Positions 12,804-22,732 of a stretch of 64,000 nucleotides of DNA are shown in pieces (the stretch's first letter is position 1; every line of letters begins with the position of its first letter). The notes beneath the pieces are model-generated. The model saw only the letters and a program-made list of their open reading frames with translations, did not search any database and was not told the DNA's origin. The position numbers were made by a program, and so were the translations under genes. Source of the DNA: Seleniivibrio woodruffii (GTDB taxonomy: Bacteria > Chrysiogenota > Deferribacteres > Deferribacterales > Geovibrionaceae); the NCBI RefSeq assembly GCF_004339245.1, contig NZ_SMGG01000004.1:62001-126000 (forward strand). Direction: 5' to 3'.

Positions 12804-12913
12804 GTCATCTCCTCCCGATTGGGCTAAGTGTATTATCATGCAGTCTTTATGGCAAGCGGGAATAACGGGGGAGGATTGTATTTTGCTATCACTCCGGCAT
12901 GGTGAATGGTTTT

Positions 12914-13001
12914 GGCTTACTCTGCCTGAGCGGCAGTGAACTTTGAAAGCGGTCTGGTGATTTCATGAAGTTTTTTCTAAGCTGCCTATACGGCAGTGAA
13001 C
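12914..13001 (-). CRISPR. One-spacer CRISPR array downstream of cas6f
   Basis: Two 28-bp type I-F repeats flank one 32-bp spacer (12942-12973). Read on the minus strand, the first repeat (13001 to 12974) differs from the main-array repeat in one loop base (GTATA instead of GCATA) and keeps the 8-nt handle CTTAGAAA. The second (12941 to 12914) keeps GTTCA, the CTGCC/GGCAG stem and a GCTCA loop but its 3' handle is eroded to AGTAAGCC. This is what is needed to make one crRNA: the first repeat supplies the 5' handle and the second only the Cas6f cut site. It has its own promoter-like sequence (13014-13022) and lies beyond the cas operon terminator. Confidence 0.9.
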
Positions 13002-13129: not shown

Positions 13130-13681
13130 TCAGAATTTGGGTACTGTGGCCTTTGTGCTGAGTCCGTATGTGCTGAACTCTCCGGCTGTGCCTGCTGTCT
13201 GCTCGGATTGCCTTATGAATAGCCTGAATTTCTGTCCCGTGCTTCTGCTGTTCAGTATGATAAACGGAAGATCCAGAAATTTAGCCTTGCTGTCCGGTAT
13301 TTTTTCTTTTGCCTGTTCTTCTGTCAGCCCAAGACATTTCATGCTTCTTCTGCGCAGCCTTTCCGGGCTGCTTTTTGCCTGAACTCTGCTGACAAGCAGA
13401 TATCCTGTTTTTTCAGGGATTTTTTTAATTCTGCCCACCAAGGCGTAATCCTGCATCACTTTAACAAATCTGTGTTCAAGAACATCCTGAAGTGGGTCAA
13501 GTTCCCCGTGGAGCCTGAGTACTGTGCCGAGGTTTTTGTCGGCTTCGGGAAAACTTATCCCGACATCGTTTCTTTTTTGTTCGGCCAGAACCAGATGTAG
13601 CTTTTCATACAGCATATTCAGAACCACTTGCGGCGCAATCTCCGGATTCGGCTGAATTTTTATATCAGTATAATACTGCAT
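13130..13681 (-). CDS. cas6f: Cas6f (Csy4) crRNA endoribonuclease
   Basis: The 183-residue protein cuts the CRISPR transcript at the base of each repeat hairpin and stays bound to the 3' end of the crRNA. 'MQYYTDIKIQPNPEI' is the usual Csy4 start, and the histidine of 'YEKLHLVLAEQ' near residue 29 fits the catalytic histidine. An arginine-rich helix, 'SPERLRRRSMK' near residue 110, would lie in the major groove of the hairpin. The C-terminus 'STYGLSTKATVPKF' resembles the family ending YGLS..TVP.F. The start codon follows cas7f by 3 bp, with AAGGA inside the end of cas7f. It is the last gene before the terminator. Confidence 0.95.
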   Translation of the reverse strand: MQYYTDIKIQPNPEIAPQVVLNMLYEKLHLVLAEQKRNDVGISFPEADKNLGTVLRLHGELDPLQDVLEHRFVKVMQDYALVGRIKKIPEKTGYLLVSRVQAKSSPERLRRRSMKCLGLTEEQAKEKIPDSKAKFLDLPFIILNSRSTGQKFRLFIRQSEQTAGTAGEFSTYGLSTKATVPKF

Positions 13682-13684
13682 GGC

Positions 13685-14707
13685 TTAATCCTTTTCGGCT
13701 TCGCCGAATACACCGCCACGGACAAAGATAGCCATTACAAAGTGCTGGTTTTCCGCTGAAGGTTTTTTATCTTTCAGCATCCAGTTGTCCAGAAGGTTAT
13801 AAAAATCTGTTTTGTCTTTCGGCTGGCGATATGCGCACCCCAGTGATGTCACAGAGCCATAGGGCTCAACGGCGATGGGCATTTCCGCCAGATCGTCGTA
13901 CCATGTATCTATAGTGCGGATGGCGTTTCCGACTTTTTGGGAATGCAGCCCTGCTGCACCGCTGACTTCATAAAGCGTTCTGCTTTTTTTACCTTTCCCG
14001 CTGCCTCCGTCCAGAATGAGTTCCTGAGAGGGGAATACCTCCTGACCTTTGCCGAGCCTTGCGAAGGCTGTCACATCGAAGATTACGAATGAACTGCCTG
14101 CCAGACCATCAGCGATTGCATCTCCCAGTTCTGATACTTTTTTGTCGGTTTTGCTGAAATCGCTCAAAGGATACTCGAACCCGTCAAATGTCCAGCTTTT
14201 TTCAGTTTTCCCTGCTGATACCCTGTTTACAACAACTTCGACCTGTTCTGCTCCGACCCTGTTTCTCCAGAGGAAGCGGCCGTTTGCGATGTTGTATGCA
14301 TATCTGTCAGCAAGGATTTTGAATCCGAACTCTGCCTTATATGCTTCAACAGTGGCTTTCAGTTTCTCCTGATATTCCGCAAGGTTACAGGCGGAGGGCG
14401 TGCCTATGCCGCTGAGGACTTTCAGAGAAAATCTTACGCAAAGTGTGTCCGCATCCGAGGGGAGGGCGGCCACATCAACTGTCTGGAGGTTTGCCGACTC
14501 AATTTTTGCATTGAATTTTGCAGGATCATCCTCTTTAGCTTTCATTCTGTTTGAGATTGTTCCTCTGACTGACTTTTGTTTCAGCTCGATCTGAGGCCAT
14601 GTGCCGTAATTTGCTTTGTCGTCCCATTTTCCGCCGTAAAAAAGGGCGTCCGATACATCGATTTTGCGTTCGAAAGCGAGCACTGATGCGTTTTTAGATA
14701 AAGCCAT
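13685..14707 (-). CDS. cas7f: Cas7f (Csy3), Cascade backbone subunit
   Basis: Several copies of this 340-residue protein coat the crRNA guide in type I-F Cascade. The N-terminus 'ASVLAFERKIDVSDALFYGG' and the segment 'YAYNIANGRFLWRNRVGA' are hallmarks of Csy3. 'HFVMAIFVRGGVFGEAEKD' near the end also fits. The length matches the family. AAGGAG lies 7 bp before the ATG. It sits between cas5f and cas6f in the standard I-F order. Nothing points to a truncated or transposon-associated variant. Confidence 0.96.
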   Translation of the reverse strand: MALSKNASVLAFERKIDVSDALFYGGKWDDKANYGTWPQIELKQKSVRGTISNRMKAKEDDPAKFNAKIESANLQTVDVAALPSDADTLCVRFSLKVLSGIGTPSACNLAEYQEKLKATVEAYKAEFGFKILADRYAYNIANGRFLWRNRVGAEQVEVVVNRVSAGKTEKSWTFDGFEYPLSDFSKTDKKVSELGDAIADGLAGSSFVIFDVTAFARLGKGQEVFPSQELILDGGSGKGKKSRTLYEVSGAAGLHSQKVGNAIRTIDTWYDDLAEMPIAVEPYGSVTSLGCAYRQPKDKTDFYNLLDNWMLKDKKPSAENQHFVMAIFVRGGVFGEAEKD

Positions 14708-14718
14708 TGTATTTCTCC

Positions 14719-15609
14719 TTATTCGTAGATTTTTTTATGTTTGCAAGCGTATATGCCGTTTTTGGCATCTGAGGTGTAAAACCAGAGCAGTTCGTCCAGT
14801 CCTTTCAGTTTGGATGGGCTTTTCCATTGGCCCAGGGTGTAAATCGCCTCGGCAAACCGGAACGGAGTCTCTTTGTCCCTTGTGTTTGCAACCTCGCCGG
14901 GCTGATAGAGCGGTGAGATTCCTGCATAGCCCACAGGGATGGGCACAAGCCATCCGGAACCCTCACGGTATGTCTGCCATTCGCCCTTGCTGCCTTCGGT
15001 TTCGATGTAGCCATGTTTCATGGCGGACAGGTCGAAGAGGGCATCCAGAAGAGTTTTTTCTTCCGGCATGTTCTTGTGGTGTTCCATCAGCAGGTCGCTT
15101 CTGTCGGTCAGGGTGAAGCCGGGCAGAAGCTTTCTTGCCAGTTTTTTATAGGTTTTTCCGTCCTGTTCGGCGAATTTGTCCAGAGATATGACTTTTGCTC
15201 CGGAAACAGGCAGGATTGATCCTCCGGCAAGACGAAGAGTTTCGGCCAGAGTCGCTGTTTCGTCTGCGTCAGGTTTCCCGCCGTAAACGCCTATTATAAG
15301 GCTGACGGTGACGTGTGCTCTTCCTTCTTCAATGATTCCTGCGGTGCTTCCGTCACTCTCCAGAGGGTTTCTGGTCTGGCTGAACTTTTTTTCATAGCCC
15401 GACTGGTAGGCCTGCGGTTCGAACGAGTGGCTTATTATACCCACTCCGTCCAGAACGGTCTGATCGCCCAGCTTTCTGCTGAGTGCGTGAACGAACCCGC
15501 AGAATGCTGTTACGGATGGAAATCCCCATGTGAGGGGGCCCGAAACACAGTTAACGTTTATTACCCGCATACGGGGCAGAACGAGGAGATGGTCAGGTAT
15601 TTTATGCAT
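14719..15609 (-). CDS. cas5f: Cas5f (Csy2), Cascade 5'-handle subunit
   Basis: The 296-residue product binds the 5' handle of the crRNA together with Cas8f. 'LVLPRMRVINVNCVSGPLTWGFPSVTAFCGFVHAL' (residues about 8-42) is the recognisable Csy2 start, and 'WLVPIPVGYAGISPLY' near residue 225 is also typical. Its start overlaps the end of cas8f by 8 bp, with GAGGAG upstream, so translation is probably coupled. Eleven bases separate it from cas7f. Confidence 0.95.
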   Translation of the reverse strand: MHKIPDHLLVLPRMRVINVNCVSGPLTWGFPSVTAFCGFVHALSRKLGDQTVLDGVGIISHSFEPQAYQSGYEKKFSQTRNPLESDGSTAGIIEEGRAHVTVSLIIGVYGGKPDADETATLAETLRLAGGSILPVSGAKVISLDKFAEQDGKTYKKLARKLLPGFTLTDRSDLLMEHHKNMPEEKTLLDALFDLSAMKHGYIETEGSKGEWQTYREGSGWLVPIPVGYAGISPLYQPGEVANTRDKETPFRFAEAIYTLGQWKSPSKLKGLDELLWFYTSDAKNGIYACKHKKIYE

Positions 15610-16924
15610 AGCTGTGCTCCTCGATAAGCTCTTTCAGAACTTCTTCCGCTATATTTTTCCACTCCCTGAACTCGTTTTCTCCGACTTCCTTTTTTCCTTT
15701 GTGTATTTTGTATATTTCTTTGTTCAGCCACTTTGCAAAACTCTTTGCGACTTCCCTGCACCAGTATCCGTCCTTGTATAGCTGAAATCTTTCCGTGTCC
15801 TCTTCCGACGGGGGATCCAGCCACAGTTTTTCTGCGGAGTTCAGACGACATTTAGGGTCTTTGCTCCAGCCGGACTCAAACAGGGATGCCATTTCATAAA
15901 ATATAGTGATCAGCTCGTCTGCGATATTGCGGATAAGCTCCTCTCTTTCAAGTCTGATGTCGATGTTGTTATTTTCATGCCAAAGCAATCGGTTCAGCTG
16001 TGAAAGTGACTCTTTCACGTAGGTTCTTTGCCTGAACTGATAGGTGAATGCGGATGCGTTGTGAATCGGCGCAGCCTTTTTGCTGTCCCATTTTGGAGGC
16101 AGGGATGGCAGCAGAACGTTCGAACCGCCACGGACACTGTTCAACTGGCTGACGTTCTGCGGTTTGGTTCCGCCATATGCCACAACGGATGTGTGCGGAA
16201 ATTCTATATAACCGCTTTCGTGAGGCAGTCCTTTTTTTCTGGCCTCTTTTGCGGCTTTCGTTTCCTCAGAATAGCGGGCTGTTCTTACCTGCTCATGAAC
16301 ATAGTGAAACATAGAAGAGGGGAAAACAGGGCTTAACAGGTGATATGTGCCGTCCTCAAGTGGGAAGAACACCTGTTTCATAAGCGTGTGAGATGATGGG
16401 GAACTTATCTCTTTAACGGTCAGAAAACCGTCGATCCACTCGTTTGCCTCTTCTTTATTGTCTGACAGTGCGGCGATAATTTCAGGCGTTCGCTCTTCCA
16501 TGTGCAGCAGAATGGTTTTGCCTTCGTATTCCTGCCGGAGGAAGGAGAAGACATCCAGGGCGGCGGCATTGCCTGATACGTCCGGCTGAATATCCCGCAG
16601 AGTGTGTGTGCCGATGTAGGCTGTATCCGGTTTATCGGAATAATAGACCGGAGATGCTTTCGCTGATGAATGTGTGAATTTCGGGATGTGGGTGGCAACT
16701 TTTATCTGCGAGGCACGCTTTGCCGCAGAAGCCAGCCATTTTTCCCTGCTGTATTCATCCTTGAGTTTCTCGGCCTTTTCCTCCAGTTTTTGCAGGGCTT
16801 CTGGAGTGCTTTCCTTTTTCATCTGTTTTTCTATCTCTTCCAGCTTGGGTTTCAGTCGTTCACCGATGAACCATTCGATGAACTCCCGAAGTGTTCGTAT
16901 AACTTCATCTTCTTTTTGGGGCAT
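15602..16924 (-). CDS. cas8f: Cas8f (Csy1), Cascade large subunit
   Basis: This 440-residue subunit recognises the PAM and contacts the crRNA 5' end. It has a charged N-terminal helical part ('EEIEKQMKKESTPEALQKLEEKAEKLKDEYSREKWL') and family segments such as 'VYYSDKPDTAYIGTHTL', 'SSHTLMKQVFFPLEDGTYHLLSPVFPS' and 'PQNVSQLNSVRGGSNVLLPSLPP'. I use the ATG at 16924, which has GGAGG 8 bp upstream; the ATG at 16939 overlaps that site. It is the first gene of the effector operon, and the gap upstream (16925-17088) holds its promoter and the crRNA-like element described separately. Confidence 0.94.
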   Translation of the reverse strand: MPQKEDEVIRTLREFIEWFIGERLKPKLEEIEKQMKKESTPEALQKLEEKAEKLKDEYSREKWLASAAKRASQIKVATHIPKFTHSSAKASPVYYSDKPDTAYIGTHTLRDIQPDVSGNAAALDVFSFLRQEYEGKTILLHMEERTPEIIAALSDNKEEANEWIDGFLTVKEISSPSSHTLMKQVFFPLEDGTYHLLSPVFPSSMFHYVHEQVRTARYSEETKAAKEARKKGLPHESGYIEFPHTSVVAYGGTKPQNVSQLNSVRGGSNVLLPSLPPKWDSKKAAPIHNASAFTYQFRQRTYVKESLSQLNRLLWHENNNIDIRLEREELIRNIADELITIFYEMASLFESGWSKDPKCRLNSAEKLWLDPPSEEDTERFQLYKDGYWCREVAKSFAKWLNKEIYKIHKGKKEVGENEFREWKNIAEEVLKELIEEHSYA

Positions 16925-16976
16925 GCGTTGTACCTCCATTATGGACTATTACTGATTTTTACATATTATATTCTTA

Positions 16977-17005
16977 TTGTAAATATAATTTTCATCCAGT
17001 ATATT
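16977..17005 (+). promoter_or_regulatory. Predicted promoter of the crRNA-like RNA
   Basis: TTGTAA at 16977-16982 and TATATT at 17000-17005 are separated by exactly 17 bp. Transcription would start near 17012, about 6 bp before the first pseudo-repeat. The -10 lies inside the sequence matched by the pseudo-spacer. The region is AT-rich, which makes promoter-like matches common. Confidence 0.45.
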
Positions 17006-17029
17006 ATAAGATATATTTTATTCTGTCGA
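17003..17029 (-). promoter_or_regulatory. Predicted promoter of the cas8f-cas5f-cas7f-cas6f operon
   Basis: On the minus strand TATAAT (17008 to 17003) is a perfect -10. TCGACA (17029 to 17024) matches the -35 in five of six bases, but the spacing is only 15 bp. The -10 lies inside the pseudo-spacer match and the -35 lies inside the first pseudo-repeat. The expected start near 16996 gives a leader of about 72 nt before cas8f. Confidence 0.45.
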
Positions 17030-17092
17030 ACAGACAGTTTAGAAGAGCATATTATATGATATGGATAAACTGCCGCACAGGCAGCCGCTTAT
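17018..17092 (+). ncRNA. crRNA-like RNA (CreR/CreA-type pseudo-repeat, pseudo-spacer, pseudo-repeat)
   Basis: Two degenerate type I-F repeats face the opposite way to the cas genes. The first (17018-17045) has stem CTGTC, loop GAACA and stem GACAG, then TTTAGAAG; compared with CTGCC, GCATA, GGCAG and CTTAGAAA of the real repeat, 17 of the last 23 bases agree, and the C to T and G to A changes in the stem are compensatory. The second (17065-17092) keeps CTGCC, loop GCACA and GGCAG, with an eroded handle, and runs into the cas2-3 stop codon. Between them is a 19-nt pseudo-spacer (17046-17064). Its first 17 nt match 16998-17014 at 15 positions, next to CC at 16996. By analogy with CreR/CreA RNAs it would make a short guide that places Cascade on this promoter without cleavage. 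Confidence 0.65.
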
Positions 17093-21384: not shown

Positions 21385-22732
21385 GGTTTGCGTTGCCTAT
21401 GCGGCAGTGAACCGGCTGGGAATACAAAGGCGAAAAGACATGGCTTTCTAAGCTGCCTATGCGGCAGTGAACTTATTAAAAGACTAAACGAAAACGGCGA
21501 AATCTTTCTAAGCTGCCTATGCGGCAGTGAACCAGGCATCCCTCTCATTAACCGCAAACAGGCATTTCTAAGCTGCCTATGCGGCAGTGAACACTATGGC
21601 CAAGGGAATAACAGCCCCTGCGAATTTCTAAGCTGCCTATGCGGCAGTGAACACAAAGCCCGCAGTAGAGATATTCGCACTTGGTTTCTAAGCTGCCTAT
21701 GCGGCAGTGAACCGGTTGCTTGATGAAGTGGGCGGCGGCTATGATTTCTAAGCTGCCTATGCGGCAGTGAACAAACTCAGTAGGCATGGGCGATATCTGG
21801 GTGATTTCTAAGCTGCCTATGCGGCAGTGAACATCGTCATGCCATATCCGAGGGAATCCAAAGCTTTCTAAGCTGCCTATGCGGCAGTGAACGTTAAGCG
21901 ACTGATGAATGGCAGGGAGGTTGCTTTCTAAGCTGCCTATGCGGCAGTGAACAGAGTTTGACGAATGGTATCAGACAACAGTCATTTCTAAGCTGCCTAT
22001 GCGGCAGTGAACGATAAAGGTTTTGCTCATGGATTTCTCAATGATTTCTAAGCTGCCTATGCGGCAGTGAACTCAAGCCCCCTCGCTTCCACCACATAAA
22101 TCAATTTCTAAGCTGCCTATGCGGCAGTGAACTTAAAACTATTTTTACGGTGCTGATGCTGATATTTCTAAGCTGCCTATGCGGCAGTGAACTCTCGGCT
22201 ATACAGTACGGGGCTTCAGTATTCTTTCTAAGCTGCCTATGCGGCAGTGAACCTGAAGAAACAGCAGTCTCAACTGCCGTTTCTTTTCTAAGCTGCCTAT
22301 GCGGCAGTGAACTATAATGAACTTGCATTTGAGGTAGAAACTGATTTCTAAGCTGCCTATGCGGCAGTGAACTATAATGAACTTGCATTTGAGGTAGAAA
22401 CTGATTTCTAAGCTGCCTATGCGGCAGTGAACTATCCAGACCATCGCCGATATATTCCAGCACATTTCTAAGCTGCCTATGCGGCAGTGAACGTTATGGT
22501 CTTCAAACTCAGTGCCGCACTTAGTTTCTAAGCTGCCTATGCGGCAGTGAACCTTTCGAGGTGCATTTTTTTGCGCGTCTCGTATTTCTAAGCTGCCTAT
22601 GCGGCAGTGAACTTGAACTTATCGTTTATGCGCTCCTGCAAAATTTTCTAAGCTGCCTATGCGGCAGTGAACATGGCCAGCACGTTCCTGCCGTCAACGC
22701 TCAATTTCTAAGCTGCCTATGCGGCAGTGAAC
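21385..22732 (-). CRISPR. Main type I-F CRISPR array, 23 repeats and 22 spacers
   Basis: Twenty-two identical 28-bp repeats occur every 60 bp from 21445 to 22732, plus one degenerate copy at 21385-21412, so every spacer is 32 bp. Read on the minus strand the repeat starts GTTCA, has a CTGCC/GGCAG hairpin with loop GCATA, and ends CTTAGAAA, the canonical type I-F form. The degenerate copy is therefore the leader-distal last repeat, and the leader lies above 22732. Two neighbouring spacers, 22313-22344 and 22373-22404, are identical. The array is transcribed in the same direction as the cas genes and probably has its own leader promoter. Confidence 0.99.

What the first reader, a model, noticed from the sequence alone, without database searches (positions are those of the whole stretch)
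16977..17092. Self-targeting crRNA-like RNA (CreR/CreA-like) in the gap between cas2-3 and cas8f
Seen: two degenerate type I-F repeats on the plus strand keep the Cas6f hairpin geometry (5-bp stem, 5-base GNNNA loop, 5-bp stem), one with a compensatory C-G to T-A pair, and the upstream one is followed by TTTAGAAG, close to the true handle CTTAGAAA. The 19-nt pseudo-spacer AGCATATTATATGATATGG matches 16998-17014 at 15 of 17 bases, next to CC, the type I-F PAM; one mismatch is at guide position 12, a position known to be flipped out and not read in type I Cascade, and the other is at position 3. The matched site overlaps the predicted -10 boxes of both the RNA's own promoter and the effector operon's promoter. 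Known: CreA and CreR RNAs in other type I systems guide Cascade to nearby promoters by partial matches that repress without cleavage. Inference: Cascade represses its own operon, or this RNA, and the level would sense free Cascade or its inhibition by anti-CRISPRs. The short guide would limit Cas7f copies and so Cas3 recruitment. Caveat: the spacer and target are AT-rich, which raises the chance of random matches.
Basis: partly seen in the sequence, partly recalled or inferred. Interest (0 to 1): 0.92.

Follow-up and report, generated by a model that had tools for sequence, protein, structure and literature searches.

The report
CRISPR guide RNA repressing its operon
A bacterial type I-F CRISPR system carries a tiny guide-RNA gene next to its own effector genes that very probably sends the CRISPR complex to sit on, but not cut, the promoter of those genes; the same arrangement recurs in distant bacteria, so it is a real self-control switch of a kind already known from other CRISPR types.

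Summary
Between cas2-3 and cas8f, on the strand opposite the cas genes, lie two Cas6f-type hairpins (17023-17037, 17070-17084), a repeat handle and a 19-nt guide. Its first 17 nt match 16998-17014 at 15 positions, next to a CC PAM (p about 3e-4 against shuffled guides; best site in the 2.9-Mb genome). Comparative evidence goes further. Of about 100 type I-F loci surveyed, 25 have an antisense mini-array with a CC-PAM target between it and cas8f (csy1), including two other Deferribacteraceae with unrelated guides; shuffled loci gave 0 of 480. Guide-target mismatches pile up at positions 6, 12 and 18, bases Cascade does not read. The PAM abuts the -35 of a promoter pointing into csy1 in 14 of 16 loci examined. 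In the window and eight relatives csy1 begins 59-72 nt from the PAM, leaving no room for a toxin. I read it as a type I-F CreR: Cascade-guided autorepression of the effector operon. CreR is known for I-B, I-E and V-A, and an I-F CreA (with toxin CreT) at this same spot in Acinetobacter, so this is a new member of a known kind. The window's guide has a seed mismatch (position 3) and a weak -35; its strength is uncertain.

The parts
17038..17084 (+). predicted Cas6f-processed CreR-like RNA (8-nt handle, 19-nt guide, 20-nt 3' handle)
   Evidence: sequence; same anatomy as the 8+20+20 nt I-F CreA of Acinetobacter (PMC10097628)
17023..17045 (+). pseudo-repeat 1: stem-loop CTGTC-GAACA-GACAG plus handle TTTAGAAG
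   Evidence: RNA fold z = -2.5
17046..17064 (+). 19-nt guide AGCATATTATATGATATGG
17070..17084 (+). pseudo-repeat 2 stem-loop CTGCC-GCACA-GGCAG; followed by a T-rich stretch, possibly the terminator
16996..17014 (+). PAM CC (16996-16997) and partially matching target (16998-17014)
   Evidence: 15/17; p about 3e-4; best site in genome
16965..16995 (-). proposed promoter of the effector operon: weak -35 (ATGAAA 16990-16995 or TGAAAA 16989-16994), -10 TATAAT 16965-16970
   Evidence: position relative to the PAM equals that in relatives; the -35 itself is poor
16977..17017 (+). predicted promoter(s) of the CreR-like RNA: TTGTAA-17-TATATT 16977-17005 or TTTTCA-17-TATATT 16989-17017
   Evidence: in many relatives a -10 ends 5-10 nt before the psiR1 stem
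15602..16939 (-). cas8f/csy1, first gene of the proposed target operon (likely start codon at 16924-16922, with Shine-Dalgarno GGAGG)
   Evidence: TIGR02564 348 bits; start
13130..15609 (-). cas5f (csy2), cas7f (csy3), cas6f (csy4)
   Evidence: TIGR02565, TIGR02566, TIGR02563
17089..21164 (-). cas2-3 and cas1, upstream of the gap
   Evidence: TIGR02562, TIGR03637
21384..22760 (-). main CRISPR array with the canonical I-F repeat

Best explanation
A type I-F CreR. A short RNA is transcribed from the + strand starting just before pseudo-repeat 1, cut by Cas6f in both hairpins, and loaded into Csy (Cascade) with a 19-nt guide, about four Cas7f subunits. The complex binds the CC-PAM site just upstream of the csy1 operon promoter and blocks RNA polymerase. 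Pairing stops at about 17 nt, so Cas2-3 is not recruited and the DNA is not cut. Free Cascade thus lowers its own synthesis; competition by ordinary crRNAs or loss of Cascade to anti-CRISPRs would lift the block. Shown here: sequence anatomy, guide-target match, comparative conservation, promoter geometry. Inferred: transcription, processing, binding, repression, sensing.
For: Window anatomy and p about 3e-4. Two Deferribacteraceae relatives with unrelated guides each match a CC-PAM site in the same gap at 15 of 15 read positions: L008 (the same locus as L003) and L007. Antisense mini-array with target in 16 of 48 loci, 0 sense, 0 of 480 shuffles; 25 loci with a same-strand target after a second survey. 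Without requiring a stem, 14 loci were found by handle plus match alone, and 13 have a perfect stem there. Mismatches over 25 loci: 21 at position 6, 19 at 12, 19 at 18, but 0-4 at every other position up to 17. The PAM lies 0-3 nt from a -35 reading into csy1 in 14 of 16 loci, the best-scoring promoter placement of the gap in 10. Compact loci (PAM to csy1 start: window 71, L007 59, L015 64, L054 63, L101 60, L119 61, L121 62, L096 70, L085 72 nt) leave no room for a toxin. I-F1 R-loops shorter than 32 bp do not trigger Cas2/3, and spacer length is 6N-4 for N Cas7f (PMC7296934).
Against: In the window the guide mismatches at position 3; in the Acinetobacter I-F CreA, mutating any of positions 2-5 abolished repression (PMC10097628), and the window is the only one of 25 loci mismatched there. 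The window's -35 is weak and 8% of other anchor positions in the gap score as well. Three of the six family loci with csy1 lack the gap and the RNA. No transcript data.
Confidence: 0.77

Rival explanations
1. A CreTA module: the RNA is a CreA antitoxin repressing a CreT toxin encoded in front of cas8f, so loss of Cascade kills the cell.
For: The known I-F CreTA of Acinetobacter sits in the same cas3-csy1 gap with the same antisense layout, CC PAM and 20-nt guide (PMC10097628). Other loci in the survey have 180-530 nt between PAM and csy1 start that could hold a toxin.
Against: In the window only 71 nt separate the PAM from the csy1 start, and about 40 nt of it lie downstream of the proposed -10; no open reading frame with a ribosome site other than csy1 itself precedes it. 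The 33-bp mini-ORF with Shine-Dalgarno that marks the Acinetobacter creT is absent.
Confidence: 0.07
2. The RNA mainly represses its own promoter (self-limiting guide), with no real effect on cas expression.
For: In the window the target covers the predicted -10 of the RNA's own promoter.
Against: In relatives the target often lies well away from the RNA's -10 while it keeps a fixed 0-3 nt distance to the csy1-facing -35.
Confidence: 0.08
3. A decayed remnant of a CRISPR array, or a chance match in AT-rich DNA.
For: The gap is AT-rich; the repeats are degenerate; position 3 is mismatched.
Against: Always antisense, never sense, in the first survey; 0 of 480 shuffles; conserved PAM-promoter spacing; mismatches concentrated at unread positions.
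Confidence: 0.06
4. The palindromic hairpins act on the cas mRNA instead: a Cas6f cleavage site or 3' end separating cas1-cas2-3 from the effector genes.
For: Cas6f stems are near-palindromic, so the sense transcript also folds; the second hairpin abuts the cas2-3 stop.
Against: Does not explain the guide-target match, the handle only on the antisense strand, or the PAM; no terminator-like site on the sense strand (one search finds one only on +).
Confidence: 0.02

Closest known systems
CreR, cas-regulating RNAs (type I-B, I-E, V-A)
   Same: crRNA-like RNA from a mini-CRISPR near cas genes, partial complementarity to a cas promoter, no toxin
   Different: type I-F; placed antisense inside the cas gene row between cas2-3 and cas8f, so the aimed-at promoter serves the effector genes and not cas1-cas2-3. 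The primary paper was not readable here; the subtypes are taken from a review (PMC13131331)
CreTA of type I-F Acinetobacter (PMC10097628)
   Same: same gap, antisense creA, two pseudo-repeats, 20-nt guide, CC PAM, mismatches mostly at flipped positions
   Different: the Acinetobacter gap of about 400 bp holds a toxic creT RNA; the window has no space for it
CrePA (protein toxin CreP under CreA control)
   Same: Cascade-guided promoter repression (PMC12737573)
   Different: no protein toxin gene in the window gap

Membership tests
CreR | guide flanked by degenerate CRISPR repeats that keep the Cas6 hairpin | tested here: met
CreR | partial complementarity, with PAM, to the promoter of the cognate cas operon | tested here: met
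   15/17 with CC PAM; conserved next to the csy1-facing -35 in relatives; the window's own promoter is predicted and weak
CreR | no associated toxin gene | tested here: met
   71 nt from PAM to csy1 start, no other ORF with a ribosome site ahead of csy1; an RNA toxin overlapping the csy1 leader cannot be wholly excluded
CreR | RNA is transcribed, processed by Cas6 and bound by Cascade | not testable with these tools
   needs small-RNA sequencing
CreR | represses cas expression and is relieved by crRNAs or anti-CRISPRs | not testable with these tools
   needs reporters
CreTA type I-F | creA antisense in the cas3-csy1 gap with CC-PAM target | tested here: met
CreTA type I-F | creT toxin with Shine-Dalgarno and mini-ORF downstream of the target | tested here: not met
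functional CRISPR immune array | near-identical repeats and 32-nt spacer | tested here: not met
   degenerate repeats, 19-nt guide

The most novel reading that the evidence does not exclude
Type I-F systems share a portable control cassette (antisense mini-CRISPR, CC-PAM site, -35 box 0-3 nt beyond the PAM) whose promoter drives either the effector operon directly (CreR, compact loci including the window) or a small RNA or peptide gene placed before it (toxin-like loci). Autorepression and toxin addiction would then be interconvertible states of one module, by insertion or loss of a short gene behind one promoter.
Probability: 0.35. Interest if true: 0.68.

Novelty: new member of a known kind. 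Interest (0 to 1): 0.56.

Why it matters
It extends RNA-guided autorepression of CRISPR systems to type I-F, a subtype against which many anti-CRISPRs are known, and shows its sequence signature in two phyla. It gives a simple genomic rule (antisense hairpins, CC PAM next to a -35 box, mismatches at 6/12/18) for finding such regulators, and it makes the idea that anti-CRISPRs provoke more Cascade synthesis directly testable in I-F.

Tried and rejected
Rfam found only ordinary CRISPR repeats, no known family for the gap RNAs. The mini-arrays of Yersinia rohdei/vastinensis (L012, L016; 13-nt guide in L012) gave no target. Chance and remnant-array readings were rejected on shuffles and comparative data. 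A terminator reading was rejected for lack of a sense-strand terminator-like site. Pfam gave nothing for three small ORFs near csy1 in other loci, only a very weak hit for a fourth, and DUF2188 for the one in L036. The primary CreR paper (Liu et al. 2023, known to me from memory) is not in the library; whether it already lists I-F candidates could not be checked.

Full report
What is there. The window holds a complete type I-F locus on the minus strand: cas1, cas2-3, cas8f/csy1, csy2, csy3, cas6f/csy4, each over its NCBIfam cut-off, and a main array with the repeat GTTCACTGCCGCATAGGCAGCTTAGAAA. In the 149-bp gap between cas2-3 and the cas8f reading frame, on the opposite strand, lie CTGTC-GAACA-GACAG, handle TTTAGAAG, guide AGCATATTATATGATATGG, then CTGCC-GCACA-GGCAG. 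The first 17 guide bases match 16998-17014 at 15 positions beside CC.

More than chance. With positions 6 and 12 left out, the match is 14 of 15. Dinucleotide-shuffled guides reach that in 0.03% of trials against the real gap, and shuffled promoter DNA in none of 20,000. Real spacers of the array score 12, 9, 8 and lower. In the entire genome it is the best PAM-bearing site, with a reversed-pattern control of zero. The RNA folds better than shuffles, z = -2.5.

Relatives. Of 12 genomes of the family, six have csy1; 51 genomes of the phylum add only one more. Three of the six, including the window, have a gap with a mini-array; the other three have no such gap. G009 (L003/L008) has guide TATACCTTTAAATTTGTTATTT against CC-TATACATTTAAATTTGTCATTT; G007 (L007, csy1 37% identical) has TATATCTTTGTATTTTATAT against CC-TATATATTTGTGTTTTAGAA, with mismatches at 6, 12, 18 and 20. 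These guides differ from the window's, so each guide and its site have stayed matched while the sequences diverged.

Survey. Csy1 loci came from a genome-contig scan and from evenly drawn genomes of the class and order of Yersinia rohdei. In the first 48 loci, an automatic search for stem, handle and CC-PAM target of at least 12 of 15 found 16 on the antisense strand, none on the sense strand, and none in 480 dinucleotide shuffles; in one of the 16 (L018) the target lies on the other strand. Dropping the stem requirement found 14 loci, of which 13 have a perfect five-pair stem at the expected place, in varied sequences (CTGTC/GACAG, CTATC/GGTAG, CTGCT/AGCAG, CTACT/AGTAG); this checks the hairpin without having selected for it. 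Nine of 54 further loci have it too. Over the 25 loci with a same-strand target the mismatches at guide positions 1 to 20 are 0,1,1,0,0,21,1,2,1,0,2,19,0,3,3,3,4,19,16,16. The search ignored positions 6 and 12 and everything past 17; low counts elsewhere are partly the result of selection, but if the pairs were mere duplicated DNA, positions 6 and 12 would match as well as their neighbours. These are the bases known to be flipped out in type I Cascade (own knowledge).

Promoter geometry. Read on the csy1 strand, the PAM (GG) is followed after 0-3 nt by a -35 box with a 16-19 nt spacing to a -10 in 14 of 16 loci, and in 10 of them no other placement in the gap scores as well. In the window this puts the -10 TATAAT at 16965-16970 and a weak -35 at 16989-16995. 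The target therefore abuts the operon's -35, with the PAM side of Cascade next to it. The RNA's own -10 tends to end 5-10 nt before the first hairpin. In the window the target also covers that -10, so self-repression may be an added effect.

Regulator or antitoxin. A type I-F CreTA is known in Acinetobacter in exactly this gap, with a 20-nt guide, mismatches at 6, 11 and 18, and a toxic creT RNA behind the repressed promoter (PMC10097628). In the window the likely csy1 start codon lies 71 nt from the PAM, which leaves a leader of about 35 nt; L007, L015, L054, L101, L119, L121, L085 and L096 have 59-72 nt. These compact loci fit direct control of csy1. Others have 180-530 nt and may carry toxins. 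CreR autorepression is reported for I-B, I-E and V-A (PMC13131331). The window is best described as a type I-F CreR.

Why no cutting. Type I-F1 Cascade takes spacers down to about 14 nt, with length 6N-4 for N Cas7f subunits, and truncated R-loops do not engage Cas2/3 (PMC7296934). A 19-nt guide pairing over 17 nt fits binding without cleavage. For this locus that is inference.

Weak points. Position 3 is mismatched here, and mutation of any of positions 2-5 broke the Acinetobacter CreA. The window's -35 is poor. No expression data exist. The copy could be weakened or decaying even though the class is sound. The survey's promoter scores use approximate sigma-70 matrices written from memory, and these organisms' promoters may differ.

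Noticed in passing
window 12913-13001 and 12827-12846, - strand: One-spacer mini-array downstream of cas6f with a TATAAT just before it; its guide matches the start region of the neighbouring ThiF/MoeB-family gene at 12 of 15 read positions (mismatches 2, 14, 15), but without a CC PAM. Could be a second regulatory guide or chance.
   Followed up: partly
window 22284-22432: Two adjacent spacers in the main array are identical (TCAGTTTCTACCTCAAATGCAAGTTCATTATA on the - strand).
   Followed up: no
window main array (about 22.5 kb) against about 17050-17080, - strand: One ordinary spacer (TGTGCTGGAATATATCGGCG...) matches a CC-PAM site in and beside pseudo-repeat 2 at 12 of 15 read positions; other spacers score at most 9.
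   Followed up: no
L070, L081, L083, L088, L097, L098, L106, L107, L111: In one group of loci the mini-array upstream of csy1 is in the sense direction, with a CC-PAM target; in L070 and L111 it lies just before a TTGAC-type promoter, and in L081 and L111 an ORF of about 100 codons lies between it and csy1. May be CrePA-like.
   Followed up: partly
L018, about 860 nt upstream of csy1: Photorhabdus mini-array whose guide matches a CC-PAM site on the other strand (13/15) upstream of a 58-aa ORF with a hydrophobic stretch; possible CRISPR-repressed small protein. No Pfam hit.
   Followed up: partly
L033, L036, L038, L040, L042, L046: Apparent hairpins shortly after the repressed promoter (L036: after the target site) and before csy1, seen by eye; candidate creT-like RNAs. 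No Rfam match.
   Followed up: partly
L065 1811 and 2157: Two spacers of one array share an 18-nt stretch (end of one, start of the other), as from overlapping protospacers.
   Followed up: no
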